Below are positions 22,122 to 39,948 of a stretch of 64,000 nucleotides of DNA, piece after piece. The DNA lies in assembly GCA_902775565.1 (NCBI GenBank), contig CACYMP010000002.1, forward strand, positions 155,834 through 219,833. The letters are read 5' to 3'. A program made the translations under genes and the position numbers. The notes under the pieces were generated by a model. It ran no database searches. It saw nothing but the letters and a program-made list of their open reading frames with translations, and was not told the DNA's origin. The number at the start of each line of letters is the position of its first letter. Positions within the stretch are counted from its first letter, which is position 1. Source of the DNA: Oscillospiraceae bacterium (GTDB lineage Bacteria; Bacillota; Clostridia; Saccharofermentanales; Saccharofermentanaceae).

Positions 22122-22157
22122 AGAGCACCTCCTTATCATCTATAGGATATCATTTAT

Positions 22158-22272: not shown

Positions 22273-22345
22273 AATGTGGAATGCTCAGCCGCGAAAGAAC
22301 TCTTGCCTGCTCTGTTTGCTAAAAAAGCATCTGACAGGTCAGCTG

Positions 22346-23089
22346 TTAGTTGTCAGTATCGGTTTCGGCGGATTCGGCCTTTGCTGCCGCTTCTTTGGCG
22401 TCGTTCTTCTTTTTCCAGACGGAATAGAAAATGCTTCCCGCGACGCAGACGACAATGATGAGGGCGATCATGATAATAAACGTCGTGTACTTCTTCTCGC
22501 CGATCGCGTCGCCGCTCATCGCGGACAGCAAGATCGCGGGGAATCTTCCGACAAAGGTGATGAATATCCATACGGGTATCTTCATGTCGGTAAAGCCCAT
22601 AACGTATGTGAAAATGTCTTTCGGAGTTCCGGGGATCAGGAAGAATATGAATGCAAGAAGATCCCTTTTCGAAGAATAGTGGAAGAACTTGACCGAATCG
22701 AGTTTTTTCTTTGAGACGAACAGGCAGGCGAACTTGACGCCGAATCTTCTGACCATGAGGAAAACGAAAAGGCTTCCCAGCGTCATCGCTACGTCAGCGA
22801 CCAGCGCGCCCTTCCATACGCCGAAAGCATAGCCTGCGGCGATCTCGAAAGGACCGCCCGGGATAACAGCCGCGACGACCTGAAGGAACATCGCTGCCAT
22901 GAGCATCAGATATCCTTTGACTCCCTGCTCGTCGATATAGGCGCGGAAAGCCGCAGGGTCCTTGCTCATTTCGAGCATCGGCTTGCAAATGAAATACGAG
23001 ATCGTACCTACTGCCGCAAAAATAAGAAGGCAGAGGATGATGCCGATCACCCTCTGTTTTCTTGATACGTTACCGTTGTTTTCTTCCAT
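22346..23089 (-). CDS. TVP38/TMEM64 (VTT, DedA-related) membrane protein
   Basis: A 247-aa protein with six or so helices and the VTT-domain fingerprints: PGGPFEIAAGYAFGVWKG and, later, FLIPGTPKDIFTYVMG. Family members are lipid scramblase/flippase-like proteins; several DedA members recycle undecaprenyl phosphate. It is the last gene of the phosphonate cluster, 18 bp after the TagB/TagF-like gene, so it may move a lipid carrier or lipid-linked product across the membrane. That link is inferred from position only. The C-terminal ~30 residues are a charged Ala/Lys/Asp tail. Confidence 0.82.
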   Translation of the reverse strand: MEENNGNVSRKQRVIGIILCLLIFAAVGTISYFICKPMLEMSKDPAAFRAYIDEQGVKGYLMLMAAMFLQVVAAVIPGGPFEIAAGYAFGVWKGALVADVAMTLGSLFVFLMVRRFGVKFACLFVSKKKLDSVKFFHYSSKRDLLAFIFFLIPGTPKDIFTYVMGFTDMKIPVWIFITFVGRFPAILLSAMSGDAIGEKKYTTFIIMIALIIVVCVAGSIFYSVWKKKNDAKEAAAKAESAETDTDN

Positions 23090-23107
23090 CTCTTACCCGT
23101 GAAATGC

Positions 23108-24409
23108 TCAGGCCTTAGCCTTTGCCTCTTTTTTGGCAGCCTTCTTGCCGCCCTTCTTCTCTGCGGCCTTGATCTCGGCTGCTTCCTTCTCTTCTAATTC
23201 CTTGAGCTTATTGCAGAGATAATCCGCGACACGTACGGCGCCTTCGCCCCTGTGCTGCCAGATCTCATCTCTTGCCTGCTCTCTTGTCTCCTTGAACTTC
23301 GGGTTCGAAAGGCACTCTTCGATGAGATCCTTAACGTTCTCAACATTCTCCATCGTAAGAGCCATGCCGATCTTGGGGAGCATCGTGAGAGACCAGGGTT
23401 CTTCCTTGAGGAAGTAGTAGTCATACTGGCCCTTATCGAAATTGATGTCCGCGTAGATGACGGGCTTGTTGAAGATGAACGCGAAATCGAGCATGACGCC
23501 TGAGAAGTCGGAGATCATGATATCGGAACGGTTCAATACATCGAAGTTGTCGTTGTCTCTGTTCCACTCGAGATCATCGCTGTTCGGGAACTCTGCCATG
23601 AGCTTATCGATGACTTCCTTGTCGGCAGTGAAAGACTGCGGGTGAGGTCTGATGATAACGTGATATCCGGTCTTCAGGAGGCTGCTGATAAAGTTGGAAC
23701 CGTACTTAACGAGGAGCGATGACTTACCCCATGAAGGTGCGAGCAGGACCGTCGTCTTGTCTGACTTGGGTGCCGGAGGAAGTGCCTGCGCGCGCTTCAT
23801 CATCTCATCCATGTAAGGGATACCGACAAGTGTGAGCTCCTTTGCGGGAAGCTTTCTGAGTTCTTCGAGCTCTCTGATCTGATCGATCTGGACTTGGCCC
23901 GAGAAAAGGATCGAGTCAAAGTAGTCAAGCTCGAACATTCTGTAAGATGCTGCGTCTCTGGGAGCGTGCATGATGTGCGTGTAGTAATCGACTGATCTCG
24001 ATCTCTTCCACTGGAGAACATCAAGACCCGGCGTCGTGCAGAAAACGAGTCTGGCATTGAGCATATTGAGTCTTGTGAAGGACTTGTTGCCCTCGCCGAT
24101 GAACTCTGTCTTGATGTGCTTATACTCCTTTTTGAGAGCCGGATCGTCAGGAGATGCCGTCATGAAGACCGCGTCCTGTCCGCGCTTTTCGAGCTCGTCG
24201 CAGATAGGCTCAAACGTGTTCCAGTATCTCTTGTTATCCGAGTAGATAACAAGCGGGATCTTGTTCTTGTCAGCCTTTCTGCCTGCGCCTGTACGAAGTC
24301 TGATGAACAGTGTTCTCGCACCGTAAACAGCAGCACTTAATACGCCGATGAGTACCGTGAAAAGCATGCTTCCCGTGCCCGGGTCGATGTAAAGATTGAG
24401 ATTAGCCAT
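23108..24409 (-). CDS. TagB/TagF-like CDP-polyol transferase, membrane-anchored
   Basis: A 433-aa protein. After an N-terminal helix starting NLYIDPGTGSMLF (~5-30) comes a GT-B fold domain of the CDP-glycerol glycerophosphotransferase family. The conserved histidine motifs HIMHAP and IRPHPQS, and SDFSGVMLDFAF, match the TagB/TagF donor site. The C-terminus is a Lys/Glu/Ala tail. Known relatives move glycerol- or ribitol-phosphate from a CDP donor to a wall polymer. Here the neighbours make CMP-phosphonates, so the donor may be a phosphonate. ATG 24409 follows GGAG and overlaps the decarboxylase gene by 8 bp; upstream ATG 24442 is not needed. Confidence 0.85.
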   Translation of the reverse strand: MANLNLYIDPGTGSMLFTVLIGVLSAAVYGARTLFIRLRTGAGRKADKNKIPLVIYSDNKRYWNTFEPICDELEKRGQDAVFMTASPDDPALKKEYKHIKTEFIGEGNKSFTRLNMLNARLVFCTTPGLDVLQWKRSRSVDYYTHIMHAPRDAASYRMFELDYFDSILFSGQVQIDQIRELEELRKLPAKELTLVGIPYMDEMMKRAQALPPAPKSDKTTVLLAPSWGKSSLLVKYGSNFISSLLKTGYHVIIRPHPQSFTADKEVIDKLMAEFPNSDDLEWNRDNDNFDVLNRSDIMISDFSGVMLDFAFIFNKPVIYADINFDKGQYDYYFLKEEPWSLTMLPKIGMALTMENVENVKDLIEECLSNPKFKETREQARDEIWQHRGEGAVRVADYLCNKLKELEEKEAAEIKAAEKKGGKKAAKKEAKAKA

Positions 24410-25526
24410 TGATGTACTCCATGAAATTGTTCTTGTTCTCAAGCGCGGTCGTTGTCGGCCTGCCCAAGTCGTCTCTTGCTCCTACCTGACACTTTATCTC
24501 TATCAATGAGAGGGCGCCTCTGGCCTTTGCGGCCTCGAGCTCCCTGTCCAAGTCTCCGAAATTGTCTACAGACGCGGTATAAGGATATCCGCATGCGGCT
24601 GCTACCGCGGGAAGGTTGACCGATGAATCGGATGCAACCGTAGGCATGCCTCCGACTGTCTCGTGCGCACCGTTGTTGATAACGATGTGGATCATGTTGG
24701 AAGGCTTGTTCGAACCGATAACGGCCATGGCTCCCATGTGCATCAGGGCAGCGCCGTCGCCGTCGATGCACCAGATCTTAAGATCAGGCTTGTTGATGGC
24801 GATGCCGAGCGCGATCGATGAGCAGTGACCCATTGATCCGACCGTAAGGAAATCGTACTTGTGGCTCATGCCGTTATTCGTTCTGTATTCGAAAAGCTCA
24901 CGTGAGATCTTGCCTGTTGTCGAGACAATGGGATCCTCGCCTGCAGCCTTTGCGATGTGTCCTATTACTTCCTCACGGTTTAAGCTGTAGGAATTCCTGT
25001 AATCGACCTTGCCGTCAAACGAAAGGGCACCCTTGGATACTACGAAAGCAACCTGCTTGCCTGCCTTGAGGATCGGAGCAAACTCATCCATAGCAGCCTT
25101 GAGTTCGTCCTCGGTGGTCTCCTTTGTGATGACGAAATTCTTTACGTCCATGTCATCGAGGAGCGTTCTTGTGACGATTCCCTGATAGATATGCTGGGGC
25201 TCGTCCTTTGTGCCGGGCTCGCCTCTCCAGCCGACAATGTAGATCGTCGGGATGGCGTAGACCTTGTCGTTAACGAGAGACGCCAAGGGATTGATGATGT
25301 TGCCCTCGCCGGAGTTCTGCATGTAGACAACAGGAACTTTTCCTGTCGCCATATGGTAACCGGCAGCCAGGGCCGCACAGTTGCCCTCATTAGCAGCGAT
25401 CATGTGATGCTTGCTGTCGATCCCGTACTTGCTCATCAGGAAGTTGCAGAGAGCTTTAAGCTGGGAATCCGGAACTCCGGTGTAGAAGTCCGCACCTAAG
25501 ATTTCGATCAGGCTTTCAACTTTCAT
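24402..25526 (-). CDS. ppd: Phosphonopyruvate decarboxylase
   Basis: A 374-aa thiamine-diphosphate enzyme that converts phosphonopyruvate to phosphonoacetaldehyde and CO2, the step that drives all C-P biosynthesis past the unfavourable mutase. The start FYTGVPDSQLKALCN and the cofactor-binding segment beginning IDGDGAALMHMG and ending NNGAHETVGG match the Ppd/Fom2 family. It lies between the dehydrogenase (21 bp upstream) and the transferase (8-bp overlap), so it is in the middle of the operon. Confidence 0.93.
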   Translation of the reverse strand: MKVESLIEILGADFYTGVPDSQLKALCNFLMSKYGIDSKHHMIAANEGNCAALAAGYHMATGKVPVVYMQNSGEGNIINPLASLVNDKVYAIPTIYIVGWRGEPGTKDEPQHIYQGIVTRTLLDDMDVKNFVITKETTEDELKAAMDEFAPILKAGKQVAFVVSKGALSFDGKVDYRNSYSLNREEVIGHIAKAAGEDPIVSTTGKISRELFEYRTNNGMSHKYDFLTVGSMGHCSSIALGIAINKPDLKIWCIDGDGAALMHMGAMAVIGSNKPSNMIHIVINNGAHETVGGMPTVASDSSVNLPAVAAACGYPYTASVDNFGDLDRELEAAKARGALSLIEIKCQVGARDDLGRPTTTALENKNNFMEYING

Positions 25527-25547
25527 AATACGTCATCCTTTATATGT

Positions 25548-26657
25548 TTATTTCAGTATTTCACGGTACAAAGACTCAATAACGTCCTCGGTCAGTCCTA
25601 CCGGATTATTCTTAAGTCTTACGGGATTTACCGATGTCTTAAGCTCGGCGTAATCCTCTTCTTTTGCGGTAGGCACGGTAAGTTCAAGCGAATCGAAAAG
25701 ACTCTGCAATTTAGCGCATGCCTCATCCGTTGTATTGCATCCGAGCATTAAGGCTATCTCTTCGAATGTCTTCTTGAGATATTCCTCGCCTCTCGGATCC
25801 ACACAGCCGTCCGTATGGGAGACCATGTAGGGGAAAAGCTTTGTATCGACAAGAGCCGCAGCATGTCCGTGCGCTACGCCGTAGAGGCTCGTGAGCTTAT
25901 AGCACATAGCGTGGCCCGCCGTTGTCTGCGTGATGTTGATCGCCTTGCCCGCGTAGTGGGCGGCGGTCATCATGGCGCGGTTTGCATTCCTGTCGTTCGC
26001 AAGATAAGCGTCAAGGTTTTCTAATATCCCGGTAACGGCTTTCTTCGAATATTCCTTGCTCTCGTCGTTGCTGTTGACCGACCAGTAGGACTCTACCGCA
26101 TGGCACAGAGCGTCAAGCATAGTGGCCTTTTTCTGATACAGGGGCAGTGTCTCTAATGCCGATTCATCGAAAAGCACGACCGAAGGAATGATCGACTGAT
26201 CAGCAACGCTCTGCTTCTTTCCATCGTAGTAGATGACCGCGAACCTCGTAGCCTCCGAGCCTGTTCCCGCCGTCGTGGGCACTGCCAGAAGGGCCACGTC
26301 GTTGGGCACGATCTCCTGCTCAAGATAGTTCTTCGAAGGATCCATGTTGCTGTAGAGCTTGATACACTTCGCAACGTCCATTGCCGAACCGCCGCCGACT
26401 GCAACGATCAGCTTTGCTCCGGACTCTTTGAAGAGCCTTACGCCTTCTTCCACGGACTCATAGAGCGGGTTCGGCTGGAAATCCGAAAACTTCGTTATCT
26501 CTATACCTAAGTCCTCGAGCTCGTCGAAATAGTCCTTGATCTTAAGGAATCCGAACGCACTGTCGCATACCAGGAATATATTGCAGATATTGTTATCCGC
26601 AAGATATCCGTTCAGCTCGGCGTATTCGTTTTCACTGCTTAATATCAGCTGTTCCAT
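25548..26657 (-). CDS. Fe-type alcohol dehydrogenase, probable phosphonoacetaldehyde reductase
   Basis: A 369-aa group III dehydrogenase. The nucleotide-binding GGGSAMDVAK and TTAGTGSE are present, as are the metal ligands within DALCHAVE, TAGHAMCYK and HGHAAAL. In phosphonate clusters such enzymes (FomC, PhpC) reduce phosphonoacetaldehyde to 2-hydroxyethylphosphonate, and its position between PEP mutase and decarboxylase genes (10 and 21 bp gaps) makes that the best assignment. A general alcohol dehydrogenase is unlikely in this setting. Confidence 0.88.
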   Translation of the reverse strand: MEQLILSSENEYAELNGYLADNNICNIFLVCDSAFGFLKIKDYFDELEDLGIEITKFSDFQPNPLYESVEEGVRLFKESGAKLIVAVGGGSAMDVAKCIKLYSNMDPSKNYLEQEIVPNDVALLAVPTTAGTGSEATRFAVIYYDGKKQSVADQSIIPSVVLFDESALETLPLYQKKATMLDALCHAVESYWSVNSNDESKEYSKKAVTGILENLDAYLANDRNANRAMMTAAHYAGKAINITQTTAGHAMCYKLTSLYGVAHGHAAALVDTKLFPYMVSHTDGCVDPRGEEYLKKTFEEIALMLGCNTTDEACAKLQSLFDSLELTVPTAKEEDYAELKTSVNPVRLKNNPVGLTEDVIESLYREILK

Positions 26658-26667
26658 TTATGCTTCC

Positions 26668-28680
26668 TCAAATCTGGTCAGGAATAAGTCTGATGATCTG
26701 CTTGAATCCCATCAGGTGCTCGTCTGCTTCCTGGGCTCTGTGGTTCTTCAAGATCTCCTCGGCGGTCTGCTGCATTGCGGGAACCTCCGCTCTCATGAGC
26801 TGGTTCGCGTAGATGACAACGTTAACACCGATCTTCTTCCACTCCTCTTCCTTAACGGAATGGAATGATGTGGGAACGATCACGATAGGAGTGATCTTAT
26901 CCTGCTCCCTGAACTTGTTGATAAACTCAATGATCTCATCTGGTTCGGTGCGGCGTGAGTGGATCATGATACCGTCAGCGCCCGCCTTGACGAATGCGAA
27001 TGCTCTGGTAAGAGCGTCCTCCATTCCCTGCTCGAGGATAAGTGACTCGATACGTGCGATGATCATGAAGTCAGCGGACTTCTGCGCTCTCTTGCCTGCA
27101 GCGATCTTCTCGCTCATCTCCTCGATCGTTGCCTGTGTCTGCTTGACCTCGGTGCCGAAAAGCGAGTTCTTCTTCAGGCCCTTCTTGTCCTCGATGATGA
27201 CAGCGGATACGCCGAGCTTCTCGAGTGAACGGACTGTATAAACGAAGTGCTCCGTAAGTCCGCCTGTATCGCCGTCGAAGATGATCGGCTTCGTCGTAAC
27301 TTCCGTGATATCGTCGATCGTTCTGAATCTTGATGTCATGTCAACGAGCTCGATGTCGGGCTTGCCCTTTGCGGTGGAGTCGCAGAGTGAAGATACCCAC
27401 ATGCCGTCGAACTGGTAGGAAGCGCCTGTCTCGTCGTGAACTACGGTGTTCTCAACGATAAGTCCGGAGATACCGTCGTGAGCTTCCATCATGGTGACAA
27501 GGCCCTTCATTGCGATAAGCTTTCTGAGCCTTCCTCTTCTGTTGTCAGGGAGTGAGAGCTCAAGTCTGCTCCTTGCGTCAACTTCCTTGTACTTGGGATC
27601 TGACGAATAAGGGAACTCTACGAGCTGTCCGCCGTATGCGGAAAGGAGCTCGATTACCTCATCCCTGATGGGCTTCTGGAAGCCTTCCTTCCAGTTGTCA
27701 CCGTGAACGATGATGTCAGGGTGATACTTTTCGATAACGTCCTTGTAGCTCAGAGTGTTCTGCTCAACTACCTGCCATACGTTCTTGATGGACTTGAACA
27801 TCGCCTTTCTCTCTTCGCAGGGAACGAGCGGGAATCTCTTGTAGGAAGCTACAGCCTCATCGCTCATGACGCCTACGATGAGGTGTCCGAGCCTTGCGGC
27901 TCTCCTTAAGATGTTGAGGTGACCGCTGTGAAGGATGTCCGTAGAGAAGCAGACATAGACCTTTCTCGACTTGACCTCTTCGAGCCTTTTGCTCATGACA
28001 GCAAGGTCTTCAGGGTTATCTACCTCACCGCAGAGGCCGTCCTTGAAATCGTAAGGAATGATGTGCGTTTTGTCTGATACTTCGTTAAGCGCATTCTCGG
28101 CGTAGCAGCCTGTCGTGCCCTCCTCGCAGAATCTGCAGATGGCATCGAGCCAGATCTCCCAGTCTTCCTTTGTAAATCTGTAGAGGGGCTGGGCAGCGAG
28201 CGCGTTGTCAAAGAACTCGATGCCGACTTTCTTGATCTCGCCGTCAACGATAACCGCCTTGAAATCCTTTTCGGGAAGCGGGATGGTCGACGATACGGTC
28301 ATTGCGGACTTCTGCTCGAGCATTGCATCAAGAACGGCATTCTCGAAAACAAGGTCACCGTGCATAAGGAGAAGATCGTCTCCCCTTAACAGGTCCCTTG
28401 CCATGTAGATCGAATAGATGTAATTCGTCTTGTCGTAGATGGGGTTATTTACGAACTTGATGTCGAGATCAAGGTTCAAAGACTTTATGTAACCCTCAAG
28501 AACATCCACGAAAGGTCCCGTGGTCATTACGATGTCGGTTATGCCGACTTCAGCGAGCTGCTTCAGCTGACGGCCTACGATCGTCTCGCCGACTTTCAGC
28601 TCAGTCATGCACTTGGGATGTTCACTCGTAAGTGTTCCCATTCTCTTGCCGAGTCCCGAATTAAGGATCAGTGCTTTCAT
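26668..28680 (-). CDS. Trifunctional fusion: sugar-type NTase, HxGH cytidylyltransferase, PEP mutase
   Basis: A 670-aa protein with three domains. Residues 1-235 are a LicC/RfbA-type nucleotidyltransferase (LNSGLGKRMGTLTSEHPKCM). Residues ~240-375 are a GCT/TagD-type cytidylyltransferase with HSGH at 251-254. Residues ~385-660 are PEP mutase with DGDTGG (469-474) and the diagnostic EDKKGLKKNS (497-506). The last two domains repeat the order of fosfomycin Fom1, in which the cytidylyltransferase activates 2-hydroxyethylphosphonate. PEP mutase makes phosphonopyruvate from PEP. The added first domain is not part of Fom1 and could act on a second phosphonate. ATG 28680 is six bases after GGGAGG; the gene abuts the preceding one. 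Confidence 0.93.
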   Translation of the reverse strand: MKALILNSGLGKRMGTLTSEHPKCMTELKVGETIVGRQLKQLAEVGITDIVMTTGPFVDVLEGYIKSLNLDLDIKFVNNPIYDKTNYIYSIYMARDLLRGDDLLLMHGDLVFENAVLDAMLEQKSAMTVSSTIPLPEKDFKAVIVDGEIKKVGIEFFDNALAAQPLYRFTKEDWEIWLDAICRFCEEGTTGCYAENALNEVSDKTHIIPYDFKDGLCGEVDNPEDLAVMSKRLEEVKSRKVYVCFSTDILHSGHLNILRRAARLGHLIVGVMSDEAVASYKRFPLVPCEERKAMFKSIKNVWQVVEQNTLSYKDVIEKYHPDIIVHGDNWKEGFQKPIRDEVIELLSAYGGQLVEFPYSSDPKYKEVDARSRLELSLPDNRRGRLRKLIAMKGLVTMMEAHDGISGLIVENTVVHDETGASYQFDGMWVSSLCDSTAKGKPDIELVDMTSRFRTIDDITEVTTKPIIFDGDTGGLTEHFVYTVRSLEKLGVSAVIIEDKKGLKKNSLFGTEVKQTQATIEEMSEKIAAGKRAQKSADFMIIARIESLILEQGMEDALTRAFAFVKAGADGIMIHSRRTEPDEIIEFINKFREQDKITPIVIVPTSFHSVKEEEWKKIGVNVVIYANQLMRAEVPAMQQTAEEILKNHRAQEADEHLMGFKQIIRLIPDQI

Positions 28681-28682
28681 CA

Positions 28683-31283: not shown

Positions 31284-31304
31284 GCCTTTTAACGCTGTCT
31301 CCCT

Positions 31305-33941
31305 TTAGTGGTTGCCCAGATATTTCCAGTTTTCTTTCTGCCAGATGCTGTCCTTAACAAAGTACCAGTCTCCGGGTTTGTATACTGTTCCGTTGTTGTA
31401 ATGTACTTTCCAGTGATCGGAATGGAAAACCGTAATGCCGTTCTTCTTGCCTTCATCGGTTATAGCCTTGCCCGTGAACGGATTGACAGGATTTTCGATG
31501 ATGCCCTTTGTCGCGATATAAGGCGTATCGGCATTTGTCATGAACTCCTCGGATGTCTTAAGCTCACCGTGAGCATTGAAATCCTTTACCAGAAGGAGCG
31601 GGGCAAATGCCTCTCCGTCGAGGCCGCCGCCGAGATCCTGCTGCAGGAGCTTCGGGAAGTTACCGATGTAGTAACCGTGGTCTGCGACAATGATGATCCT
31701 CGTATTGTCGTAGCAGCCGATCTCCTTGAGGTAATTGAGCCAGTTTCCGATCTCCCTTAATGTCGCGAGGTCGCACTGATAATTTCTGAAATCCTTCGGA
31801 TTCTTCATCCACATCATGTCGCCCTTGAGGATGAACCTTATCTTGCCCTGGGGAGAATTGTCGAACTTGGTATTGTTGACAACGTCAGCGGGCTCGTATG
31901 CAGGCTCCTGAAGGAATTCCGAATCGTGGCACGTATCGAAACCGATATAGACGAAGTGGTTGCCGTCTCCGTCTTCCACCTTGGTCATCTCGTTCATTGC
32001 CTTAAGCGCGTGATAATCCCACATGAAGATCTGCTCGTGTCCCTCTGCCTTCGAGGTACCTGAACGTCTCTGGTCCATGAGGCGCGACGGATCGACGATC
32101 CTGGTCTCGTTGTATTTACCTTCGTCGTAGAGAGCCGGCTGAAGCACTACGGGAGCGGATCTGAAGAGCGAATAACCGAAGAGGTTATATCTGAAAGCCG
32201 TCGTCTGCTCTTCCTTGTAGCCTTCCCTCATCTCATCGGGCAGGTAGGAATACTTCGTGCTGTATGCCTTTGTGTTCTTAACGTCATCGAAAACGGAGAG
32301 ATCCGGATACCACTGATAGCCTGCGTACTTCGGGTTGATGACCGTAGCGTCAAAGCCTGCATTGGTGAAGATCGTCGGCATGAGCTTTAAAGCTTCCATA
32401 TGGTCTTCCGCAAGAGTCTTGTCGGTACGTGAGTTCATCTGCTCGGGAGTGTATTCATATCCTCCGAGGAGAGCAGGAACACCAAAGTTGGTGTGCGTAC
32501 CGAATGAAGCGGTGTTGTGATAGTAAGTAAAACCGTCGTAAATGGTATTGAATTCTCTCTTCTCGTTGAAGATGAACGGAAGCATCGGTCCGATCGCTCT
32601 GTCCGTCATGATGACAACGACATTCTTTCCCGTCTTGGAAAGAGGGAGCTCTGCCTTGGATGTCTCGGATCTCAAGTCTTCCCTGTAGCCCGCGTCGATC
32701 TTTCCGATATTGGTGATGCCGAGGACCGCGAAAGCAAGGGCCGCGGAGAAAGCAATGACCGGTGTGAGGTTCTTTCCGAAACGAACGAGCAGGAATCCGA
32801 CTACTGCAGCTCCGAGCGTAGCACCGAGGCTGATGAGGATGTTTGCTGTGTTTACCTTAAGTGAAAGATCCTTGTAGACCAGCGTATTGGTCATGTCGCC
32901 CGAACCGATGCTGAAGAGCTTTGAGTTCAAGATGGCGGCGATCGCGCCGATGAACATTACGTAAGCCCAGACCTTCTTTGCCTTTTCTGAAGACATTGCG
33001 TAGAAGATAGACGGCCAGAGAAGGAAAAGTCCAAATCCCTTTGCCGTTGCCTCGAGGACATCCCACATGGGATGTGTCATGGAGTAGAGGTTTACAAACT
33101 CTTCAGGTGCGGATGCGACAGTGATCATGGGGAGATAGAAACCCAGGTAGACCGCGCATGTGAGGCAGGAGAAGAAGAAAACGGCCTTGTATGCGTTTGC
33201 CTTCTTGCCGGAAACCTCAGCGGTCTCATTCTCAGCCTTCTTCTCAGCCTTTGCCTTCTTCTTGGAAGAAATGGCCTTGACGATGATGTTCTTGAACAGT
33301 GAGAAAAGGTTGTTGCAGGTCCAGTAAATGACCATACCCGAAGGTGAGTTATAGAGCAGTGCGAGGAACAGGAAAGCCATGACCCAGAGCTGGACCTTGG
33401 ACTTCATCGGCATCTTGTCCGCATAGATGGCAGCCGAGATCAGGTTGATAGCTGTCATTACGAAAGGCAGAACATTGATCGCCATGCCTCCGATATTAAG
33501 CAGCGCGTCAGGAGAGCCCAGATCGGCAATAGGGCCGAAGCTTTTTCCCATGAGGAATGTGTTGTTGTGAAGCATCCTGTAAGCCGCAAGGAAGAACGGA
33601 ACCTGGAGGAGCAGTGATACTGAGCTCCTGAGGACGCCCAGAGGGCTGTAGTTGTTCTGGCGGTAGAATGTCTGCAGTATCATGAAGCGCTCGTCGCCCT
33701 TGAAATACTGCTTGATGTGCTTGATGGTAGGGCCTAAGCGCTCCTCATCCTCTTTTGCCTCTTCCTGGATCTTGTCCGCACGCATATAAAGCGGCAGCAC
33801 GATAAGGCTGAATACAAGGCTGAGCAAAAGGATGCACACACCGGATACCGGGATGTACTTGTTGAGCTGCGAGAAGATTATCTTGAAGACCATTTCGATT
33901 GGTCCGATTATCAAAGCGTAGAGATATTGAAAGAATGCCAT
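31305..33941 (-). CDS. YidC/Oxa1-like domain fused to LTA-synthase/sulfatase-like domain (copy B)
   Basis: An 878-aa paralogue of the preceding protein with the same order: YidC-like core 1-225, four helices (~252-410), catalytic domain to the end. Asp447, Thr484 in HTNFGVPALLGG, His672 and Asp754-His755 in ADHGYYIGN fill the same positions. It is the first gene of the downstream transcription unit, with a promoter at 33979-34007. ATG 33941 matches the start of both paralogues, but its ribosome site is poor: GGAG lies ~15 bases away, inside a six-codon upstream reading frame, which may limit translation. The next gene starts 21 bp after its stop. Confidence 0.85.
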   Translation of the reverse strand: MAFFQYLYALIIGPIEMVFKIIFSQLNKYIPVSGVCILLLSLVFSLIVLPLYMRADKIQEEAKEDEERLGPTIKHIKQYFKGDERFMILQTFYRQNNYSPLGVLRSSVSLLLQVPFFLAAYRMLHNNTFLMGKSFGPIADLGSPDALLNIGGMAINVLPFVMTAINLISAAIYADKMPMKSKVQLWVMAFLFLALLYNSPSGMVIYWTCNNLFSLFKNIIVKAISSKKKAKAEKKAENETAEVSGKKANAYKAVFFFSCLTCAVYLGFYLPMITVASAPEEFVNLYSMTHPMWDVLEATAKGFGLFLLWPSIFYAMSSEKAKKVWAYVMFIGAIAAILNSKLFSIGSGDMTNTLVYKDLSLKVNTANILISLGATLGAAVVGFLLVRFGKNLTPVIAFSAALAFAVLGITNIGKIDAGYREDLRSETSKAELPLSKTGKNVVVIMTDRAIGPMLPFIFNEKREFNTIYDGFTYYHNTASFGTHTNFGVPALLGGYEYTPEQMNSRTDKTLAEDHMEALKLMPTIFTNAGFDATVINPKYAGYQWYPDLSVFDDVKNTKAYSTKYSYLPDEMREGYKEEQTTAFRYNLFGYSLFRSAPVVLQPALYDEGKYNETRIVDPSRLMDQRRSGTSKAEGHEQIFMWDYHALKAMNEMTKVEDGDGNHFVYIGFDTCHDSEFLQEPAYEPADVVNNTKFDNSPQGKIRFILKGDMMWMKNPKDFRNYQCDLATLREIGNWLNYLKEIGCYDNTRIIIVADHGYYIGNFPKLLQQDLGGGLDGEAFAPLLLVKDFNAHGELKTSEEFMTNADTPYIATKGIIENPVNPFTGKAITDEGKKNGITVFHSDHWKVHYNNGTVYKPGDWYFVKDSIWQKENWKYLGNH

Positions 33942-33978
33942 ACCGACTAATACATACTCCTGTCCATTTAACCGTTTA

Positions 33979-34007
33979 ATTCTATATCTCTTTGCTTTTT
34001 TACGCAA
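33979..34007 (-). promoter_or_regulatory. Promoter of phosphonate unit 2
   Basis: On the minus strand TTGCGT (34007-34002), 17-bp spacer, TAGAAT (33984-33979); predicted start near 33972, about 30 bases before the copy B start. The -10 is identical to that of unit 1 at 39994. Confidence 0.65.
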
Positions 34008-34075
34008 ATTATAAATATATTAAATATAAGGCAAATGGGAGCCAGCTTATGTTCACTTTCAACATTTCGCGCTTC

Positions 34076-34119
34076 AATTACGGTCTGAAACCGCATTTAC
34101 CTGTATTTTGACCGTAATT
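34076..34119. repeat. Single 44-bp palindromic unit
   Basis: AATTACGGTC (34076-34085) is perfectly inverted at 34110-34119, giving the same 44-bp unit size as the arrays at 1253 and 50841. An outer pair TTCACTTT (34052) / AAAGTGAA (34152) flanks it. It lies in the 304-bp non-coding gap 33942-34245, which otherwise holds the unit 2 promoter and the PntC-like gene's terminator. Confidence 0.75.
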
Positions 34120-34176
34120 TTTCATGGCAGGAATGACCGGCCAACACATTTAAAGTGAATACAAACCAAACAAAAA

Positions 34177-34202
34177 AGCACACTCCGGACAGGAATGTGC
34201 TT
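34177..34202 (-). terminator. Terminator of phosphonate unit 1
   Basis: AAGCACA (34177-34183) pairs with TGTGCTT (34196-34202); on the minus strand the stem is followed by a T-run. It ends the tagF-like/fusion C/pntC unit just after the PntC-like gene. Confidence 0.82.
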
Positions 34203-34245
34203 GTTTTGAAGCAAAAACTATATCAGTTTATGCGAACAACCCGGT

Positions 34246-36051
34246 TCAGCCGAGTTCTTCCTTCAGTGCGGCAAGGAGCTTGTCGTTGTCTTCAGTGTTC
34301 CTTACGGCGAGTCTTATGTACTTGCCGCCATTGGTCTTGTTTGAAAGATCCTTTATCAGTATCTGATGCTTGAAAAGCAGGGTCTTAAGCAGGTCTCTGG
34401 GCCTCATGTAGGTAAGTTCCACCATGATGTAATTCGCCTGCGAAGGTATTACGCGGAGGCCTTCGATCTTGCCGAGCTCATCCTGGAATCTCTTCCTCTC
34501 TGCCCTGATCGTTGCCATCGCGGCGTCGTAATCCTTTGCGTATTTTTCCTCGATCTGCATGTAGAATTCCGCGATGGAATTGATGTTCCAGATGGCGACG
34601 TCCTTCTTCATGCGGGCGATCATGATCATGTCGCCGGATGCCAGGACACCGAGTCTTAAGCCCGGAACTCCATATGTCTTGGAGATGCTCTTGAGGACAT
34701 ACAAATGCGGGTTGGGCTCTAATATCTCGCTTTCAATGAGAGTGTTGTTCGGTTCGTCAGCGAAATCCGCGAAAGACTCGTCGATGACCAGGCCGATATT
34801 CTTCTCTTTGGTCCAGTCGATGAGCCTTAAGAGGTCCTTTTTCGCAATGTAGTTGCCCGACGGGTTGTCAGGGTTGACTATGACGATCTGGCTGACTTCC
34901 TTATCCTCAAAGTAGTTCATGACGTCATCCGCGGTGTAGGAATAGTCCTTGTTCTCGGGTATGAAGCTTATTGATTCGGGCTCGTTGTATCTGTTGGGAT
35001 ACTCCTCGAAAGTGGGTCTTACAAAGCCCGTCCTGCCGTGAAGCTGCGACATGAGCGATTTGATGAGCTCTGCGGTGCCGTTGCCGACCACGATGTTCTC
35101 GGCGTGAATGCCGAAGTTCCTGGCTGCAAGAAGCGAATTGACGCGCATTCCGGACGGATACTGCGCAACCAGCGTATCGAAATTCGCCTTCATCTCATCG
35201 AGCATCTTCTGCGGCGGGAAATAAGGATTTACGAGGAAGTTGTAATCGAGCATCTTCGGATATCTCCAGTATCCGCCGAACCTGCCCTGGATGAGCTTTG
35301 CCATCTCGTCGGGGTCCTGGGTGAAAAGAGTCTCCGCAAGGTCCAAATCCTGGATGTCGTTTATCTCAAACCACATCTGACCCTGAAGGCGCAGTGCCCT
35401 GACTCTCGGAACGTCTAAGATGGTGGTGACCTTCAGCACCTCGTCAAAGAAGCGGTTCTCCTTTAAGGCCTTTTCATAGGCATCAAGGAAAGGCGCGTAG
35501 TACTTCTCGCAGTAGTCTTTGCTGAACTTGCTGATATTTACAGTCTTGTAGTAGTCGCCGATCTCGGAGAACTTGAACTCCTTGCCTGATACGAAAGACA
35601 GGATGGAATCGTCGTCGGAGAGCCTTACGCATGTGCCGTCCATCCAGCTCTCGTACTTGTCGACGAGCGCCACGTTTTCGCGCGGATCGTTAACGAGGGC
35701 ATCGAGAACGGAGTCCTCGAAGATCAGGTCGGACTCGAAAAGGAGAGTGTCGTCCTGTATGAGCTCGTTTCTTGCGAGCGCGAGCGAATAGATGTTGTTT
35801 GTCTTGTCGTAGATCGGGTTCTCGATAAAGGTTACGGGAATCTTGATATCAAGCGTCGAAATGTAGTCGATGAGCTTTTGGCCCTCGTAGCCTACCACGA
35901 TGACTACCCTTGAGACTTCGTGCTTTTCGATCTGGTGGAGCATGCGGTCGATCAGCGTTACGCCCGCGACCTTAACCATACACTTGGTATTCTCTTTTGT
36001 AAGTTCTTTCAGTCTTCTGCCCATTCCGGCAGCGAGTATCAGAGCCTGCAT
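34246..36051 (-). CDS. pntC: PntC-like fusion: cytidylyltransferase and PLP transaminase
   Basis: A 601-aa fusion. Residues 1-240 are a nucleotidyltransferase (LAAGMGRRLKELTKENTKC; acidic ESD at 106-108). Residues ~255-601 are a fold-type I aminotransferase with NPDNPSG (393-399) and the cofactor lysine in SISKTYG (Lys458). The same two-domain order is known for PntC of Treponema denticola, where a 2-aminoethylphosphonate transaminase is joined to the enzyme making CMP-aminoethylphosphonate. The transaminase part looks HisC/CobD-like, so threonine-phosphate-type chemistry is an alternative, but the PEP mutase next door favours phosphonate. Start ATG 36051 follows GAGGTG. It is third in unit 1, 25 bp after fusion C. 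Confidence 0.85.
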   Translation of the reverse strand: MQALILAAGMGRRLKELTKENTKCMVKVAGVTLIDRMLHQIEKHEVSRVVIVVGYEGQKLIDYISTLDIKIPVTFIENPIYDKTNNIYSLALARNELIQDDTLLFESDLIFEDSVLDALVNDPRENVALVDKYESWMDGTCVRLSDDDSILSFVSGKEFKFSEIGDYYKTVNISKFSKDYCEKYYAPFLDAYEKALKENRFFDEVLKVTTILDVPRVRALRLQGQMWFEINDIQDLDLAETLFTQDPDEMAKLIQGRFGGYWRYPKMLDYNFLVNPYFPPQKMLDEMKANFDTLVAQYPSGMRVNSLLAARNFGIHAENIVVGNGTAELIKSLMSQLHGRTGFVRPTFEEYPNRYNEPESISFIPENKDYSYTADDVMNYFEDKEVSQIVIVNPDNPSGNYIAKKDLLRLIDWTKEKNIGLVIDESFADFADEPNNTLIESEILEPNPHLYVLKSISKTYGVPGLRLGVLASGDMIMIARMKKDVAIWNINSIAEFYMQIEEKYAKDYDAAMATIRAERKRFQDELGKIEGLRVIPSQANYIMVELTYMRPRDLLKTLLFKHQILIKDLSNKTNGGKYIRLAVRNTEDNDKLLAALKEELG

Positions 36052-36076
36052 AAATTACACCTCATAGCCTTTGTTA

Positions 36077-38692
36077 TCAGTATTTTCCGAGGAATTTCCA
36101 ATTGGATTTCTTCCAGATGCTGTCCTGTACGGTAAACCATTCGCCGCTTTCAAAGGCGATACCGTTGTTTCTTCTGACATCCCAGTTGCTGCCGGAGCCT
36201 AAGATCTTGATCCCTTCCTTCTTGGGCTCGTCGGTTATCGGTTTGCCCGTGAACGGATTGACGGGGTTGCTGACGATACCCTTAGTCGCAATGTAAGGCG
36301 TATCGGCATTAGTCATGAAATCTTCTGATGTCTGTAACTCTCCGTGAGCATTGAAATCCTTGACCAGAAGGAGCGGTGCGAATGACTCTGCGTCAAGCTT
36401 TCCGCCGATCTCATACTGTATGAGATTCGTGAAGTTTCCGAGATACCATCCGTGGTCTGACACGATGATGATCCTCGTGTTATCATAAACGCCGTTTTCC
36501 TTGAGATATTCAAGCCAGTTGCCGATAAGCTGGTAGGCCGCAACGTTGCACTGGTAATGCTTGTAGTCATTTTCGTCACGCATGCTCATGACCTCACCCT
36601 TGCGGATGAATCTCGCCTGATGCGTCTTCTCATACTGCCTGTTATCAACAATGTCGGCAGGCTCATAGGCGGGCTCCTGGAGCATCTGGGTATCGTGTGT
36701 GATATCTGATCCGAAATAGACGTAATGGCAGTCAGAGCTGTCATCGATCTTCGTGATCTGATCCAGAGCCTTTGTCGAGTAATAGCACCACATGAATTCC
36801 TGTCTGCTGCCGTAAGCGGCAAATCTGCTCACCGACTTCTGCGCGCTGAGCTTTGAAGGATCCACGCTCTTCGTGTCGTTGTAATTGCCACCGTCATAGA
36901 GCAACTCCTGCAGTCCTACAGGCGCAGACTTGAAGATGGAGTAACTGAACAGGTTGTATCTCAGATTGTCGGTGTATGCGGTCTTATAGGTCTCCCTGAG
37001 GTCATCAGGCAGATAAGCGTCCTTCGTGCTGTATGCCTTGATCTTTTCCATGCCGTCGAAAACGGAGAAGTCGGGATACCATGTGTAGCCGACATAAGGC
37101 ACATTGATCAGCGTCGCGTCATAGCCCTCTTTGATAAAGATCTTCGGCATGAGCTTTACAGCCTCGTCGTGCTTTTCGCCAAGGAGCTTGTCGGTACGCG
37201 CGTTCATTGCATCAGGAGTGTATTCATAACCTCCCAGGAGCGCCGGCGAAGCGACGTTCGTATGGAAGCCGAAAGACGCGGTGTTATGATAGTGGACGAA
37301 GCCGTCGTATATGGTCTTGAGTTCCTTTTTTTCGTTGAATATGTAAGGCAGCATCGGTCCGACCGCTCTGTCACACATGATGACGACAACGTTCTTTCCG
37401 TTTTTCGAGAGCGTGAATTCGGCCTTGGATGTAGGCGATCTCTTTGCTTCAAGGTAGCCCTTGTTGACCTTGCCGATGTTCGTGAAACCGAGCACACAGA
37501 AGACCAGCGCGACGGAGAAGCATATGACCGACGGGGTATATTTTCCGAAGCGCAGGATAAGGAAGCATATAGCCACACCGCCGAGCGTTACGAGAAGGCT
37601 GATGAGGATATTCTTCACGGTGAAAGACGGCTTATTCGAATAGATCAGGAGATTCGAGATAAATCCGAAATTGTTGCTGAAGAGCTTTGAATTAAGGATA
37701 GCCGAAGCAGTAAGGGAGAACATGACATAAGACATTATTCTCTTGCCCTTGACCGTGGCTATCGAATAGAAGATGAAAGGCCAGATGAAGAACAGGCCGA
37801 AGCTCTTTGCGGTCGAATCCAGTATGTCGAGCATGGGATGCGACAGGCTGTAGAGGTTTACGAACTCTTCGGGTGCCGAAGCAACGGTCTGCATGGGGAT
37901 ATAGAATCCCGTGTATAATGCCAGCGCAACGCATGAAAGGATGAAGACCGCCTTGAACTTGGGTTCTAGCGGCTTTATTGCCTTTGCGGGCTTGGCTTCA
38001 GCATTCTTTTTCTTTGAGCTGATGATCTTTCTTACAACGTTCTTGCAGAGAGAATAGATGTTGTTGCATATCCAGTAAAGGACGAGTCCCGAAGGCGACT
38101 GGTACAGAAGTACGAGGAATACCAGGGCGAGACCGTACATCTGGATCTTCGTCTTGAGCGGGAATCCCTTTGAATAGATGAAGCTCGAGGCAACGTTGAT
38201 CAGGGTCATAATGACGGGCAGTACATTAATGGCAAATCCGCCGATAACGAGAAGTCCGTCAGGTGCGGAAAGACTTGCAATGGGCCCTAAGCTTACACCT
38301 TCGAGGATCCTGTTGTGTGACAGCATGTTGTATGCACCAAGGAAGAACGGGATCTGCAGCAGGATCGAGACAGAACTCGAAAGCACGTTTAATGGGCTGT
38401 AATCGTTCTGCCTGTAGCACGTCTGCAGGAGCATGAACCTCTCGTCGCCCTTGAAGGTCTGCTTGATATGCTTGACCATCGGGGCGATCTTGTTCTCCTT
38501 GTCCTTCGCCTCTTCCTGCACCTTGTCGGCACGGTTATATAGCGGAAGGACTAATGTATTTACAACGATACTCAGTATGATTATCGAAAGAACGGTGTTA
38601 CCCGATACCTTTGAGATGATCGAGAAGATCGTCTGCAAAAGGAATTCGATAGGATAAAGCGTTAAAAGATACAGCACGGTAAGGAAGCTCAT
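36077..38692 (-). CDS. YidC/Oxa1-like domain fused to LTA-synthase/sulfatase-like domain (copy C)
   Basis: An 871-aa third paralogue, more diverged than A and B are from each other. It has a YidC-like core (1-225; QSPSGLVLYWICNNIYSL), four helices (~248-405) and a catalytic domain with Asp441, Thr478 in HTNVASPALLGG, a conserved THD histidine and SDHGWYLGN. ATG 38692 is chosen because GGAGG lies seven bases upstream and the stop of the TagB/TagF-like gene overlaps it (ATGA). The next gene, the PntC-like fusion, suggests this copy acts with CMP-aminoethylphosphonate, whereas A and B sit with the hydroxyethylphosphonate genes. That pairing is inferred. Confidence 0.85.
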   Translation of the reverse strand: MSFLTVLYLLTLYPIEFLLQTIFSIISKVSGNTVLSIIILSIVVNTLVLPLYNRADKVQEEAKDKENKIAPMVKHIKQTFKGDERFMLLQTCYRQNDYSPLNVLSSSVSILLQIPFFLGAYNMLSHNRILEGVSLGPIASLSAPDGLLVIGGFAINVLPVIMTLINVASSFIYSKGFPLKTKIQMYGLALVFLVLLYQSPSGLVLYWICNNIYSLCKNVVRKIISSKKKNAEAKPAKAIKPLEPKFKAVFILSCVALALYTGFYIPMQTVASAPEEFVNLYSLSHPMLDILDSTAKSFGLFFIWPFIFYSIATVKGKRIMSYVMFSLTASAILNSKLFSNNFGFISNLLIYSNKPSFTVKNILISLLVTLGGVAICFLILRFGKYTPSVICFSVALVFCVLGFTNIGKVNKGYLEAKRSPTSKAEFTLSKNGKNVVVIMCDRAVGPMLPYIFNEKKELKTIYDGFVHYHNTASFGFHTNVASPALLGGYEYTPDAMNARTDKLLGEKHDEAVKLMPKIFIKEGYDATLINVPYVGYTWYPDFSVFDGMEKIKAYSTKDAYLPDDLRETYKTAYTDNLRYNLFSYSIFKSAPVGLQELLYDGGNYNDTKSVDPSKLSAQKSVSRFAAYGSRQEFMWCYYSTKALDQITKIDDSSDCHYVYFGSDITHDTQMLQEPAYEPADIVDNRQYEKTHQARFIRKGEVMSMRDENDYKHYQCNVAAYQLIGNWLEYLKENGVYDNTRIIIVSDHGWYLGNFTNLIQYEIGGKLDAESFAPLLLVKDFNAHGELQTSEDFMTNADTPYIATKGIVSNPVNPFTGKPITDEPKKEGIKILGSGSNWDVRRNNGIAFESGEWFTVQDSIWKKSNWKFLGKY

Positions 38693-39948
38693 TTCTTTGC
38701 CTCCTTTTCTTTTTCCATCTGCTCGGCCTCGATGCCGGCATACTTGTCGACAATGTAATCGGCGATGAGACTTGCACTGTTGCCGACGTTGCACCAGGTC
38801 TCAATACGGGCCTGCTCGACCTCAACGGGGTCAACACCTTCGGAGATGCTCGTATCGATCAGTTCCTTGATGTTCTCGGCATTCTCTTTCGTCAGCTCTT
38901 TTCCGAGCTTGCGGATCGTGCTGACCATCCAAGTCTCGCCTTCAAGGCACCAGCAATCGTAAGGATCCTTTGTATAGCCCTCAGTGGTGTAGATAACAGG
39001 TTTATTGAATATGAAGATGAAATCGTACATTACGCCTGAGTAGTCGGAGATCATGATGTCCGCGCTCGCAAGAACGTCAAAATTGTCGTTATCCCTGTTC
39101 CAGTGGAGCTTGTCGGTCTCCGGATACTTGTTCATCAGCGTCTCGATAGTATCCTTGTCAGCCGTGTAGGACTGCGGATGCGGGCGGATGATTATGTTGT
39201 AGCCGGTCTCGATGAGCCTGTCGATAAAGGATGATCCGAATTTTACAAGGATGCTGTTAGGGCCCCATGTAGGTGAGAGCAGGACGGTCTTCTCCCCCGT
39301 TTCCTTCTTTTCGTAACCCTGAGCGCGCTGGTACATACTGTCAAGATAAGGAAGTCCCATCATCTTGAGTTCTTTCGGCGGCAGATTTCTCTGCCTTTCG
39401 AGCTCTCTTACCTCATGCTCTGCAAATTCTCCGGGGAGCATGAGCGCATCGTAGTAATCCAGACCGTAAAGCCTGCAGAGAGCCGTGTCTCCGTTTGCGT
39501 GGAATACGTGAACATAGTAATCGACCGTCTTGGAACGCTTCCACTGGAAAACATCGAGGTTCGGAGTGGTAGCGACCACAACGCCCGCGATGAGCATGTT
39601 GAGCTTCGCGTAAGCCTTGTTGCCCTCGCCGATAAACTCTGTCTTGATGTTCTCGAAATGACATTCAAGCGCCGGATCGTCAGGAGATGCCGTCATGTAG
39701 ACTGCCTTCTGGCCGCGCTTGTCAAGCTCTTCGCAGATAGGTTTGAAAGTGGTCCAGTATCTTTTGTGGTCAGCGAAAATAACGACTGGGATCTTCTTCG
39801 CATTCCTCTCGGCCTGCGACTTGACACCCGCCATGGTCTTCGCTTTTATCCAAAGGATCCGCACTACGTAAACGACAGCGCTGACGGCACTTATCAGTAT
39901 GGTAAACAGCATACTGCCCGTGCCGGGATCTATGTAAAGATTAACCAT
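38689..39948 (-). CDS. TagB/TagF-like CDP-polyol transferase, membrane-anchored (second copy)
   Basis: A 419-aa paralogue of the protein at 23108-24409, with the same N-terminal anchor NLYIDPGTGSMLF and GT-B transferase domain (HVFHANGD, IRPHPQS, SDYSGVMYDF). It is the first gene of unit 1, so each of the two units carries one such transferase. The family uses CDP-activated donors to prime or extend wall polymers; here a CMP-phosphonate donor is plausible. Start ATG 39948 is five bases after GGAGG. A short Lys/Glu tail ends the protein. Confidence 0.86.
   Translation of the reverse strand: MVNLYIDPGTGSMLFTILISAVSAVVYVVRILWIKAKTMAGVKSQAERNAKKIPVVIFADHKRYWTTFKPICEELDKRGQKAVYMTASPDDPALECHFENIKTEFIGEGNKAYAKLNMLIAGVVVATTPNLDVFQWKRSKTVDYYVHVFHANGDTALCRLYGLDYYDALMLPGEFAEHEVRELERQRNLPPKELKMMGLPYLDSMYQRAQGYEKKETGEKTVLLSPTWGPNSILVKFGSSFIDRLIETGYNIIIRPHPQSYTADKDTIETLMNKYPETDKLHWNRDNDNFDVLASADIMISDYSGVMYDFIFIFNKPVIYTTEGYTKDPYDCWCLEGETWMVSTIRKLGKELTKENAENIKELIDTSISEGVDPVEVEQARIETWCNVGNSASLIADYIVDKYAGIEAEQMEKEKEAKK

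What the first reader, a model, noticed from the sequence alone, without database searches (positions are those of the whole stretch)
22346..39948. Phosphonate-activating and surface-polymer cluster with three YidC-sulfatase fusions
Eleven collinear minus-strand genes in two adjacent units combine C-P bond formation (PEP mutase, Ppd), two fates for phosphonoacetaldehyde (Fe-type dehydrogenase to hydroxyethylphosphonate; PntC-type transaminase to aminoethylphosphonate), three nucleotidyltransferase domains, two TagB/TagF-like transferases, three membrane transferase-like fusions and a VTT protein. Inference: CMP-hydroxyethylphosphonate, carrying both a hydroxyl and an activated phosphonate, could be polymerised by TagF-like enzymes into a teichoic-acid-like phosphonate chain, with CMP-aminoethylphosphonate as decoration.
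Basis: partly seen in the sequence, partly recalled or inferred. Interest (0 to 1): 0.93.

Follow-up and report, generated by a model that had tools for sequence, protein, structure and literature searches.

The report
Phosphonate surface-decoration modules with YidC fusions
A bacterium close to rumen Clostridia carries a ten-gene cluster predicted to make a rare carbon-phosphorus compound, activate it with CMP and likely fix it to the cell surface through a pair of proteins (a TagF-like protein and a membrane-insertase/phosphatase-superfamily fusion) that in relatives also sits beside genes predicted to activate choline.

Summary
The genes are there: ten (not eleven) minus-strand genes at 22346-39948. 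PEP mutase and phosphonopyruvate decarboxylase pass curated cut-offs. The cytidylyltransferase domain fused to the mutase matches Fom1, which makes CMP-hydroxyethylphosphonate, and an Fe-type dehydrogenase accompanies this three-domain mutase in 11 of 12 loci. CMP-HEP is therefore the likely product.

The "PntC transaminase" is a nucleotidyltransferase fused to a CobD-like domain; 9 of 12 sampled genomes with it lack PEP mutase, and the own genome has no AEP transaminase above cut-off. It more likely makes CDP-ethanolamine or similar.

The new part is the transferase pair. Each fusion joins a YidC-fold domain without the groove arginine (54 of 54 rows) to an EptA/LtaS-like ectodomain with a predicted Thr nucleophile; it is not a sulfatase. 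In relatives TagF-like genes and fusions sit beside choline-type, NT-CobD or phosphonate genes, and the own genome shows no LicD. I read it as a modular, LicD-free head-group transfer system, perhaps with a lipid relay. Because choline cannot be chained, polymerisation of HEP is possible but not the simplest reading. No activity was tested; the acceptor is unknown.

The parts
38689..39948 (-). TagFb: TagF/TagB-like transferase with N-terminal membrane helix (YIDPGTGSML motif)
   Evidence: PF04464 48.9 bits; A3 alignment, 18 rows, conserved RPHPQS and YIDPGTG region; tree places it with NT-CobD-linked TagFs
36077..38692 (-). YS3: YidC-fold + AlkP-superfamily ectodomain fusion
   Evidence: PF02096 85 bits, PF00884 32 bits; catalytic D/T/D/H kept and groove Arg absent in A2
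34246..36051 (-). NT-CobD: MobA/LicC-like nucleotidyltransferase fused to CobD-like PLP domain; predicted CDP-ethanolamine-type donor synthesis
   Evidence: genome distribution largely independent of PEP mutase; LicD-like genes in 4 of 11 fetched loci
34176..34202 (-). terminator-like hairpin between the two units
   Evidence: 11 pairs, T tail; z -3.15
31305..33941 (-). YS2: YidC-AlkP fusion, modelled (pLDDT 87.3)
28683..31283 (-). YS1: YidC-AlkP fusion of the phosphonate-linked clade
28312..28674 (-). N-terminal MobA/PntC-like nucleotidyltransferase domain (substrate unknown)
   Evidence: PF12804 residues 11-131
27601..27960 (-). Fom1-like cytidylyltransferase domain; predicted CTP:HEP cytidylyltransferase
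   Evidence: 5x3d_A 124.8 bits over residues 249-368; HxGH and HGD[DN]W motifs
26677..27528 (-). PEP mutase domain with EDKxxxxxNS motif
   Evidence: TIGR02320 394 bits, cut-off 319.6; sequence
25548..26657 (-). Fe-type alcohol dehydrogenase; predicted phosphonoacetaldehyde to HEP
   Evidence: PF00465/PF25137; with three-domain PEP mutase in 11 of 12 loci
24402..25526 (-). phosphonopyruvate decarboxylase
   Evidence: TIGR03297 447 bits, cut-off 312.5
23108..24409 (-). TagFa: TagF-like transferase of the phosphonate-linked clade, modelled (pLDDT 83.7)
   Evidence: PF04464 46 bits; model, Foldseek top hit TagF 3l7k; clade of 8 phosphonate-linked rows
22346..23089 (-). VTT/DedA-like membrane protein; predicted lipid flippase
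   Evidence: PF09335 63.5 bits
21522..22139 (-). cytidylate-kinase-like gene, conserved next to the cluster; predicted CMP recycling
   Evidence: PF13189 183.6 bits; in 6 of 76 scan loci, each within 3 genes of the pair, and L119

Best explanation
Ten minus-strand genes form two adjacent modules that pair TagF-like proteins with YidC/alkaline-phosphatase-superfamily fusions; the larger module is predicted to make CMP-2-hydroxyethylphosphonate (CMP-HEP) and would pass its phosphonate head group, likely by way of a membrane lipid, to a cell-surface acceptor. Steps: PEP mutase and Ppd give phosphonoacetaldehyde (families shown, activity inferred); the Fe-ADH reduces it to HEP (inferred from neighbourhood); the Fom1-like domain makes CMP-HEP (inferred from homology). 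The TagF-like protein, held at the inner face by its N-terminal helix, transfers the head group from CMP-HEP to a lipid or lipid-linked acceptor (inferred). The fusion's YidC-fold domain, and perhaps the VTT protein, lets that lipid cross the membrane (speculative), and its EptA/LtaS-like ectodomain moves the group through a Thr intermediate to a surface glycan or polymer (inferred). The smaller module (TagFb, YS3, NT-CobD) likely does the same with a CDP-aminoalcohol such as CDP-ethanolamine, and a third locus on contig C5 with CDP-choline. The pair thus would play the part that LicD plays elsewhere.
Against: No activity is shown for any gene. VIA Z to true sulfatases and phosphonate monoester hydrolases (up to 21.2) is as high as to LtaS, so the fold does not tell transfer from hydrolysis; Foldseek TM-scores are low (0.21-0.27 by query). 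41 of 76 fusion loci, 17 of them over 20 kb, show none of the three head-group sets, and three of the eight own fusions stand without TagF. 27 of 32 PEP-mutase loci lack the fusion and 14 of 32 hold a LicD-like gene, one of them (L104) together with a fusion. Choline as substrate is itself inferred: the kinase passes Pfam Choline_kinase, but NCBIfam gives no hit over cut-off (best GntI 153 < 357). The Fom1-type CyT domain also occurs beside PhnW-type transaminases at up to 57% identity to Fom1, more than the window's 49%, so CyT alone does not prove HEP. The Fe-ADH is far below TIGR03405. The extra N-terminal nucleotidyltransferase has no known role. The lipid relay and the scrambling role are conjecture.
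Confidence: 0.5

Rival explanations
1. Cytosolic decoration: the TagF-like proteins work like LicD, putting HEP (and ethanolamine/choline phosphate) on lipid-linked glycan repeats inside the cell; the fusions do a separate job such as transferring groups from bulk phospholipid.
For: Only the TagF-like proteins are predicted CMP-donor transferases; three own fusions lie away from any TagF; LicD-like genes are a common neighbour of PEP mutase in the class sample (14 of 32 loci).
Against: 61 of 76 loci brought in by a fusion also hold a TagF-like gene, and both trees follow the head-group label, which suggests a shared pathway.
Confidence: 0.27
2. One reading: TagF-like enzymes chain CMP-HEP into a teichoic-acid-like poly(hydroxyethylphosphonate).
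For: CMP-HEP carries both an activated phosphonate and a free hydroxyl; Foldseek best match of TagFa is the polymerase TagF (3l7k) and by sequence Cps3D, more weakly TarL.
Against: The same family pairs with choline-type genes (20 of 76 loci; own C5 locus), whose head group cannot be extended; other PEP-mutase loci with this pair are of AEP type (L030, L044, L104).
Confidence: 0.12
3. The end product is a phosphonolipid; the fusion only moves or remodels it.
For: VTT/DedA-like gene and YidC-fold domains next to the transferases; only two CDP-alcohol phosphatidyltransferase matches in the genome.
Against: The ectodomain keeps a complete Thr/D/D/H site in 54 of 54 rows, which a mere lipid mover would not need.
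Confidence: 0.08
4. A released phosphonate natural product of the fosfomycin kind.
For: The first steps match fosfomycin biosynthesis (Fom1-like fusion, Ppd, Fe-ADH by homology; pathway recalled and PMC6697681 passages).
Against: No methyltransferase or epoxidase family among the ten genes; the rest are TagF-like and membrane proteins.
Confidence: 0.03

Closest known systems
Fosfomycin pathway, Fom1/Fom2/FomC (Streptomyces wedmorensis)
   Same: PEP mutase fused to a Fom1-type cytidylyltransferase domain, Ppd, Fe-type dehydrogenase: predicted route to CMP-HEP (Fom2 and FomC recalled)
   Different: Extra N-terminal nucleotidyltransferase; no later Fom steps; TagF-like and membrane fusion genes instead
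Pnt phosphonyl-tailoring pathways (PntC enzymes Tde1415 and Ari1348; PMC6697681)
   Same: CMP activation of a phosphonate, proposed for cell-surface use; PEP mutase fused to both nucleotidyltransferase types is a 2.9% class in that survey (passages)
   Different: No class V AEP transaminase; product predicted HEP not AEP; candidate later steps are a TagF/YidC-AlkP pair (that abstract calls the steps after the mutase enigmatic)
Lic pathway (LicA/B/C/D phosphocholine)
   Same: CDP-alcohol logic; relatives have LicC-, LicA- and LicB-like genes beside the pair
   Different: No LicD match in the own genome; TagF-like plus fusion stand in its place
EptA/MCR-1 and LtaS/LtaP lipid-head-group transferases
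   Same: AlkP-superfamily ectodomain with conserved Thr and metal-ligand residues after several predicted membrane helices
   Different: An additional YidC-fold domain at the N-terminus; lipid donor unknown
YidC/Oxa1 insertases
   Same: PF02096 over cut-off and profile match to YidC structures; helices of the model are compatible
   Different: Groove arginine is N or S in 54 of 54; a separate ordinary YidC with the arginine exists
TagF/TarL/Cps3D
   Same: PF04464, best Foldseek hit TagF, sequence-profile hits Cps3D and TarL
   Different: Short single-domain protein with conserved YIDPGTGSML membrane segment; linked to choline-type and phosphonate donors

Membership tests
PEP mutase | TIGR02320 over cut-off and EDKxxxxxNS motif (motif per PMC6697681 passage) | tested here: met
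   394.3 > 319.55 bits; EDKKGLKKNS in sequence
Phosphonopyruvate decarboxylase | TIGR03297 over cut-off | tested here: met
   447.1 > 312.5 bits
Fom1-type HEP cytidylyltransferase | CTP_transf_like domain fused N-terminally to PEP mutase with HxGH motif | tested here: met
   49% identity to the 5x3d fragment
Fom1-type HEP cytidylyltransferase | CTP:HEP cytidylyltransferase activity | not testable with these tools
   -
Phosphonate-associated Fe-ADH (TIGR03405) | score over curated cut-off | tested here: not met
   133.7 < 423.7 bits; function as HEP dehydrogenase is inferred from neighbourhood only
PntC-AEP transaminase fusion | class V (PhnW/AepZ-type) aminotransferase domain | tested here: not met
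   Aminotran_1_2, best NCBIfam TIGR01140 CobD 183 bits, below its 290.6 cut-off; own genome TIGR03301 best 130.7 < 360.8
CobD/Ser-P decarboxylase | score over CobD cut-off or shown decarboxylase activity | tested here: inconclusive
   183.3 < 290.55; best PDB relatives 6oux and CobD 1lc5
Sulfatase | formylglycine Cys/Ser nucleophile | tested here: not met
   Thr at the presumed nucleophile position (T484) in 54 of 54; position read from the Pfam match and sequence, not from measured coordinates
EptA/LtaS-type transferase | AlkP fold, Thr nucleophile, D/E-D-H metal site | tested here: met
   residue roles recalled from EptA/LtaS
EptA/LtaS-type transferase | transfer of a lipid head group | not testable with these tools
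   -
YidC insertase | conserved positive groove residue | tested here: not met
   N 40, S 14 of 54; alignment to E. coli YidC; conservation claim from PMC8920935 passages, which also show E. coli YidC can work without it
TagF teichoic polymerase | PF04464 and TagF fold | tested here: met
TagF teichoic polymerase | polymerising activity | not testable with these tools
Lic pathway | LicD transferase | tested here: not met
   PF04991 0 matches in own genome, 93.6% complete

The most novel reading that the evidence does not exclude
The YidC fold has been turned from protein insertion into a dedicated lipid-head-group conveyor: TagF-like enzymes load CMP/CDP-activated head groups (HEP, aminoalcohol, choline) onto a carrier lipid, the arginine-less YidC domain scrambles it, and the fused AlkP domain delivers the head group outside. 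This would be a LicD-free, head-group-agnostic surface decoration system of Clostridia, with a phosphonate version in this window.
Probability: 0.3. Interest if true: 0.82.

Novelty: new variant of a known kind. Interest (0 to 1): 0.62.

Why it matters
The abstract of PMC6697681 calls the pathway steps after PEP mutase 'enigmatic'; that paper fills in the nucleotidyl activation. This cluster names concrete candidate genes for the step after activation, ties them to predicted phosphocholine and likely phosphoethanolamine decoration in the same bacteria, and proposes a new job for the YidC fold. Such head groups on gut and rumen Clostridia would bear on host recognition, phage adsorption and phosphorus chemistry.

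Tried and rejected
AEP branch: rejected on family class, genome distribution and absence of a PhnW-type hit over cut-off. Within the whole sample NT-CobD and PEP mutase do overlap somewhat (3 of 12 against 29 of 379, Fisher p 0.066), all three inside the window's genus. Sulfatase activity: rejected for lack of a Cys/Ser nucleophile. YidC-type protein insertion as the main role: doubtful, since the groove Arg is absent, although PMC8920935 (passages) reports that E. coli YidC can do without it when residue 517 is hydrophilic or aromatic. Recent foreign origin: GC is even across the window. Rfam: no match at gathering score in the window; no tRNA. Identity of CyT to Fom1 as a marker of HEP versus AEP type: did not separate cleanly. 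Promoter and terminator scans gave no more hits than shuffles overall (9 against 17.5; 17 against 16.7), so only the 34202-34176 hairpin is used. In the VIA rows only model residues 437-878 are well covered; the identity of the YidC part rests on sequence profiles, and its pLDDT is lower in places (blocks of 61-76). Model coordinates were not at hand, so active-site distances were not measured.

Literature: YidC + sulfatase domain + fusion, 0 papers; phosphonate + PEP mutase + nucleotidyltransferase + glycerophosphotransferase, 0; phosphocholine/licC/CDP-glycerol/sulfatase/Lachnospiraceae, 0 with four of five terms; hydroxyethylphosphonate/teichoic/phosphonolipid/YidC, 63 papers with two of four terms, 12 listed, of which only PMC6697681 looked relevant by listing; others (phosphonoglycan; CobD, ethanolamine phosphate) gave listings that I did not read further. 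The library lacks most subscription journals, so absence is weak.

One search used one protein and scored at most two candidates per genome, so fusion counts are lower bounds. Several of the 31 PEP-mutase loci are cut by contig ends (for example L097, L109, L121), so neighbour counts there are lower bounds; labels are BLAST matches of 45 bits or more to my reference set, and many LicD-like ones are only 24-39% identical. Counts differ (TagF 58 and 61 of 76) because gene calling was improved; one search is used. A2 holds 54 rows: the eight own fusions plus 46 chosen from the 120 listed of 1293 relatives. Context labels go by the nearest head-group gene, so YS2 is labelled cobD though it opens the phosphonate unit; both trees are 'quick' ones with warnings about long branches, and near-copies make labels cluster.

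Full report
WHAT IS THERE. The window is part of contig C2 of a 2.61 Mb genome. Between 22346 and 39948 lie ten minus-strand genes, not eleven. In transcription order: TagFb, YS3, NT-CobD; then, after a terminator-like hairpin at 34202-34176, YS2, YS1, NT-CyT-PEPM, Fe-ADH, Ppd, TagFa, VTT. A cytidylate-kinase-like gene (21522-22139) follows on the same strand and is found beside the cluster in relatives.

THE PHOSPHONATE ROUTE. PEP mutase (394 bits, cut-off 319.6) and Ppd (447, cut-off 312.5) pass curated cut-offs, and the mutase has the EDKxxxxxNS motif that PMC6697681 uses (passages). The middle domain of the three-domain protein matches the Fom1 cytidylyltransferase structure 5x3d at 124.8 bits over 120 residues. 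PMC6697681 reports that this Fom1 domain makes CMP-HEP, and that 2.9% of PEP mutases are fused to both nucleotidyltransferase types, as here (passages). In a class-wide sample 32 of 391 genomes have PEP mutase. I fetched a region around each of the other 31 (several are cut by contig ends) and scored these 31 loci plus the window, each by its first PEP mutase (L094 holds two). Twelve are NT-CyT-PEPM and 11 of these have an Fe-ADH (1 has a class V transaminase); twenty are CyT-PEPM, of which 6 have an Fe-ADH and 7 a class V transaminase. The transaminases of L030 and L044, from the other scan, pass TIGR03301. So the three-domain form goes with the dehydrogenase, and HEP is the predicted product. 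Against this, the Fe-ADH itself scores far below the TIGR03405 cut-off, and CyT identity to Fom1 does not separate the two types: the window's domain is 49% identical, some beside class V transaminases reach 57%.

THE AEP BRANCH FAILS. The gene called a PntC-type transaminase has an Aminotran_1_2 domain closest to CobD-type enzymes (TIGR01140 183 bits, below its 290.6 cut-off; PDB 6oux and 1lc5). Full-length relatives occur in 12 of 391 genomes, of which 9 lack PEP mutase; outside the genus 0 of 8 have it. Of the 11 other loci fetched, 4 hold LicD-like genes, and in L136, L137 and L141 neighbours are glycosyltransferase, polysaccharide-flippase-type or Wzy-type genes. The own genome has no AEP transaminase over cut-off. 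A phosphoserine- or phosphothreonine-decarboxylase-like step feeding a CDP-aminoalcohol is the better guess; Ser-P decarboxylation by CobD-like enzymes is recalled, not tested.

THE PAIR AND ITS HEAD GROUPS. A scan of named genomes gave 76 loci. TagF-like genes are in 61; choline-type genes (LicA-, LicB- or BCCT-like) in 20, NT-CobD in 11, PEP mutase in 11; 41 show none of the three head-group sets. Within three genes of TagF or fusion I count LicA-like 19 of 406 genes against 2 of 449 further out, LicB-like 15 against 0, nucleotidyltransferases 40 against 7, PEPM 11 against 0, CobD 11 against 0. Pfam labels representatives as nucleotidyltransferase, choline kinase, EamA transporter and LicD; NCBIfam has no hit over cut-off for the kinase, so choline is inferred. 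On the TagF tree (75 rows) the labels need 20 changes against 39.7 shuffled, and starred branches force at least four changes for the phosphonate label; on the fusion tree (126 rows) 24 against 61.3. L030 (Schwartzia succinivorans) and L044 carry the pair beside AEP-type phosphonate genes. Of 12 fusion-bearing genomes in the class sample 10 have PEP mutase, against 22 of 379 others; outside the genus 3 of 3, all in one family, against 20 of 377. Kinship inflates the first figure. Seen from the PEP mutase side, 5 of 32 loci hold the fusion and 14 a LicD-like gene, so the pair is one of at least two solutions.

THE OWN GENOME has eight fusion-length YidC-domain genes. Two lie on C5 beside a TagF-like gene and opposite a nucleotidyltransferase/choline-kinase fusion, a second nucleotidyltransferase and a BCCT transporter. 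It has no LicD match (genome 93.6% complete) and, apart from the fusions, six other AlkP-superfamily matches. So choline and phosphonate donors are predicted but the usual LicD transferase is not found; the TagF-like/fusion pair is the natural candidate.

MECHANISM. Shown: gene content, motifs, neighbourhoods, distribution. Inferred: CMP-HEP; transfer by TagFa; delivery by the fusion. Speculative: the lipid relay, with YidC-fold scrambling (YidC and other Oxa1-type insertases scramble lipids in vitro, PMC10491306 passages) and the VTT protein helping (DedA proteins are reported as C55-P flippases in an abstract seen in the listing, PMC12893004). CMP released by transfer could be re-used through the cytidylate-kinase-like gene. 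A polymer of HEP remains possible but is not needed: the same family sits with choline-type genes, and choline cannot be chained.

VERDICT. Real, conserved and informative. The unexpected part is the TagF-like/YidC-AlkP pair as a LicD-free head-group transfer system.

Noticed in passing
window 22188-22283 and 57603-57686: Motif AAACGTGGAATG: 8 copies (one mismatch allowed) in the window against 0.31 expected, five of them between the VTT and cytidylate-kinase-like genes in tandem and inverted order; 12 exact copies in the genome against 0 for the reversed control, on C2, C5, C11 and C26. Possible regulator sites or a small interspersed repeat.
   Followed up: partly
L089 (own contig C5:58000-77999): Second TagF-like + two fusions beside a HTH-nucleotidyltransferase-choline kinase fusion, a nucleotidyltransferase and a BCCT choline/betaine transporter.
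   Followed up: yes
L090, L091, L092 (own C24, C2, C4): Three solitary YidC-AlkP fusions without TagF nearby; the one on C24 shares its neighbours with L012 and L013.
   Followed up: partly
L094: One locus holds two PEP mutase sets side by side: NT-CyT-PEPM with Fe-ADH, and CyT-PEPM with class V transaminase and Ppd.
   Followed up: no
window 44195-44788: NusG-paralogue-like gene (PF02357 + KOW) near the cluster; such paralogues often control surface-polymer operons (recalled).
   Followed up: no
window 14852-16144: Serpin-family protease inhibitor gene (PF00079, 278 bits).
   Followed up: no
L143:9012-11450 and L014: LuxR-type regulator gene (GerE domain, weak MalT-like TPR, L143) in the middle of the NT-CobD + TagF + fusion locus; a same-size gene stands at the same place in L014.
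   Followed up: no
L135, L138; L137: NT-CobD neighbours include ornithine-cyclodeaminase/mu-crystallin-family genes (L135, L138) and an octopine-dehydrogenase-family gene (L137), hinting at an unusual amino-acid-derived head group.
   Followed up: no
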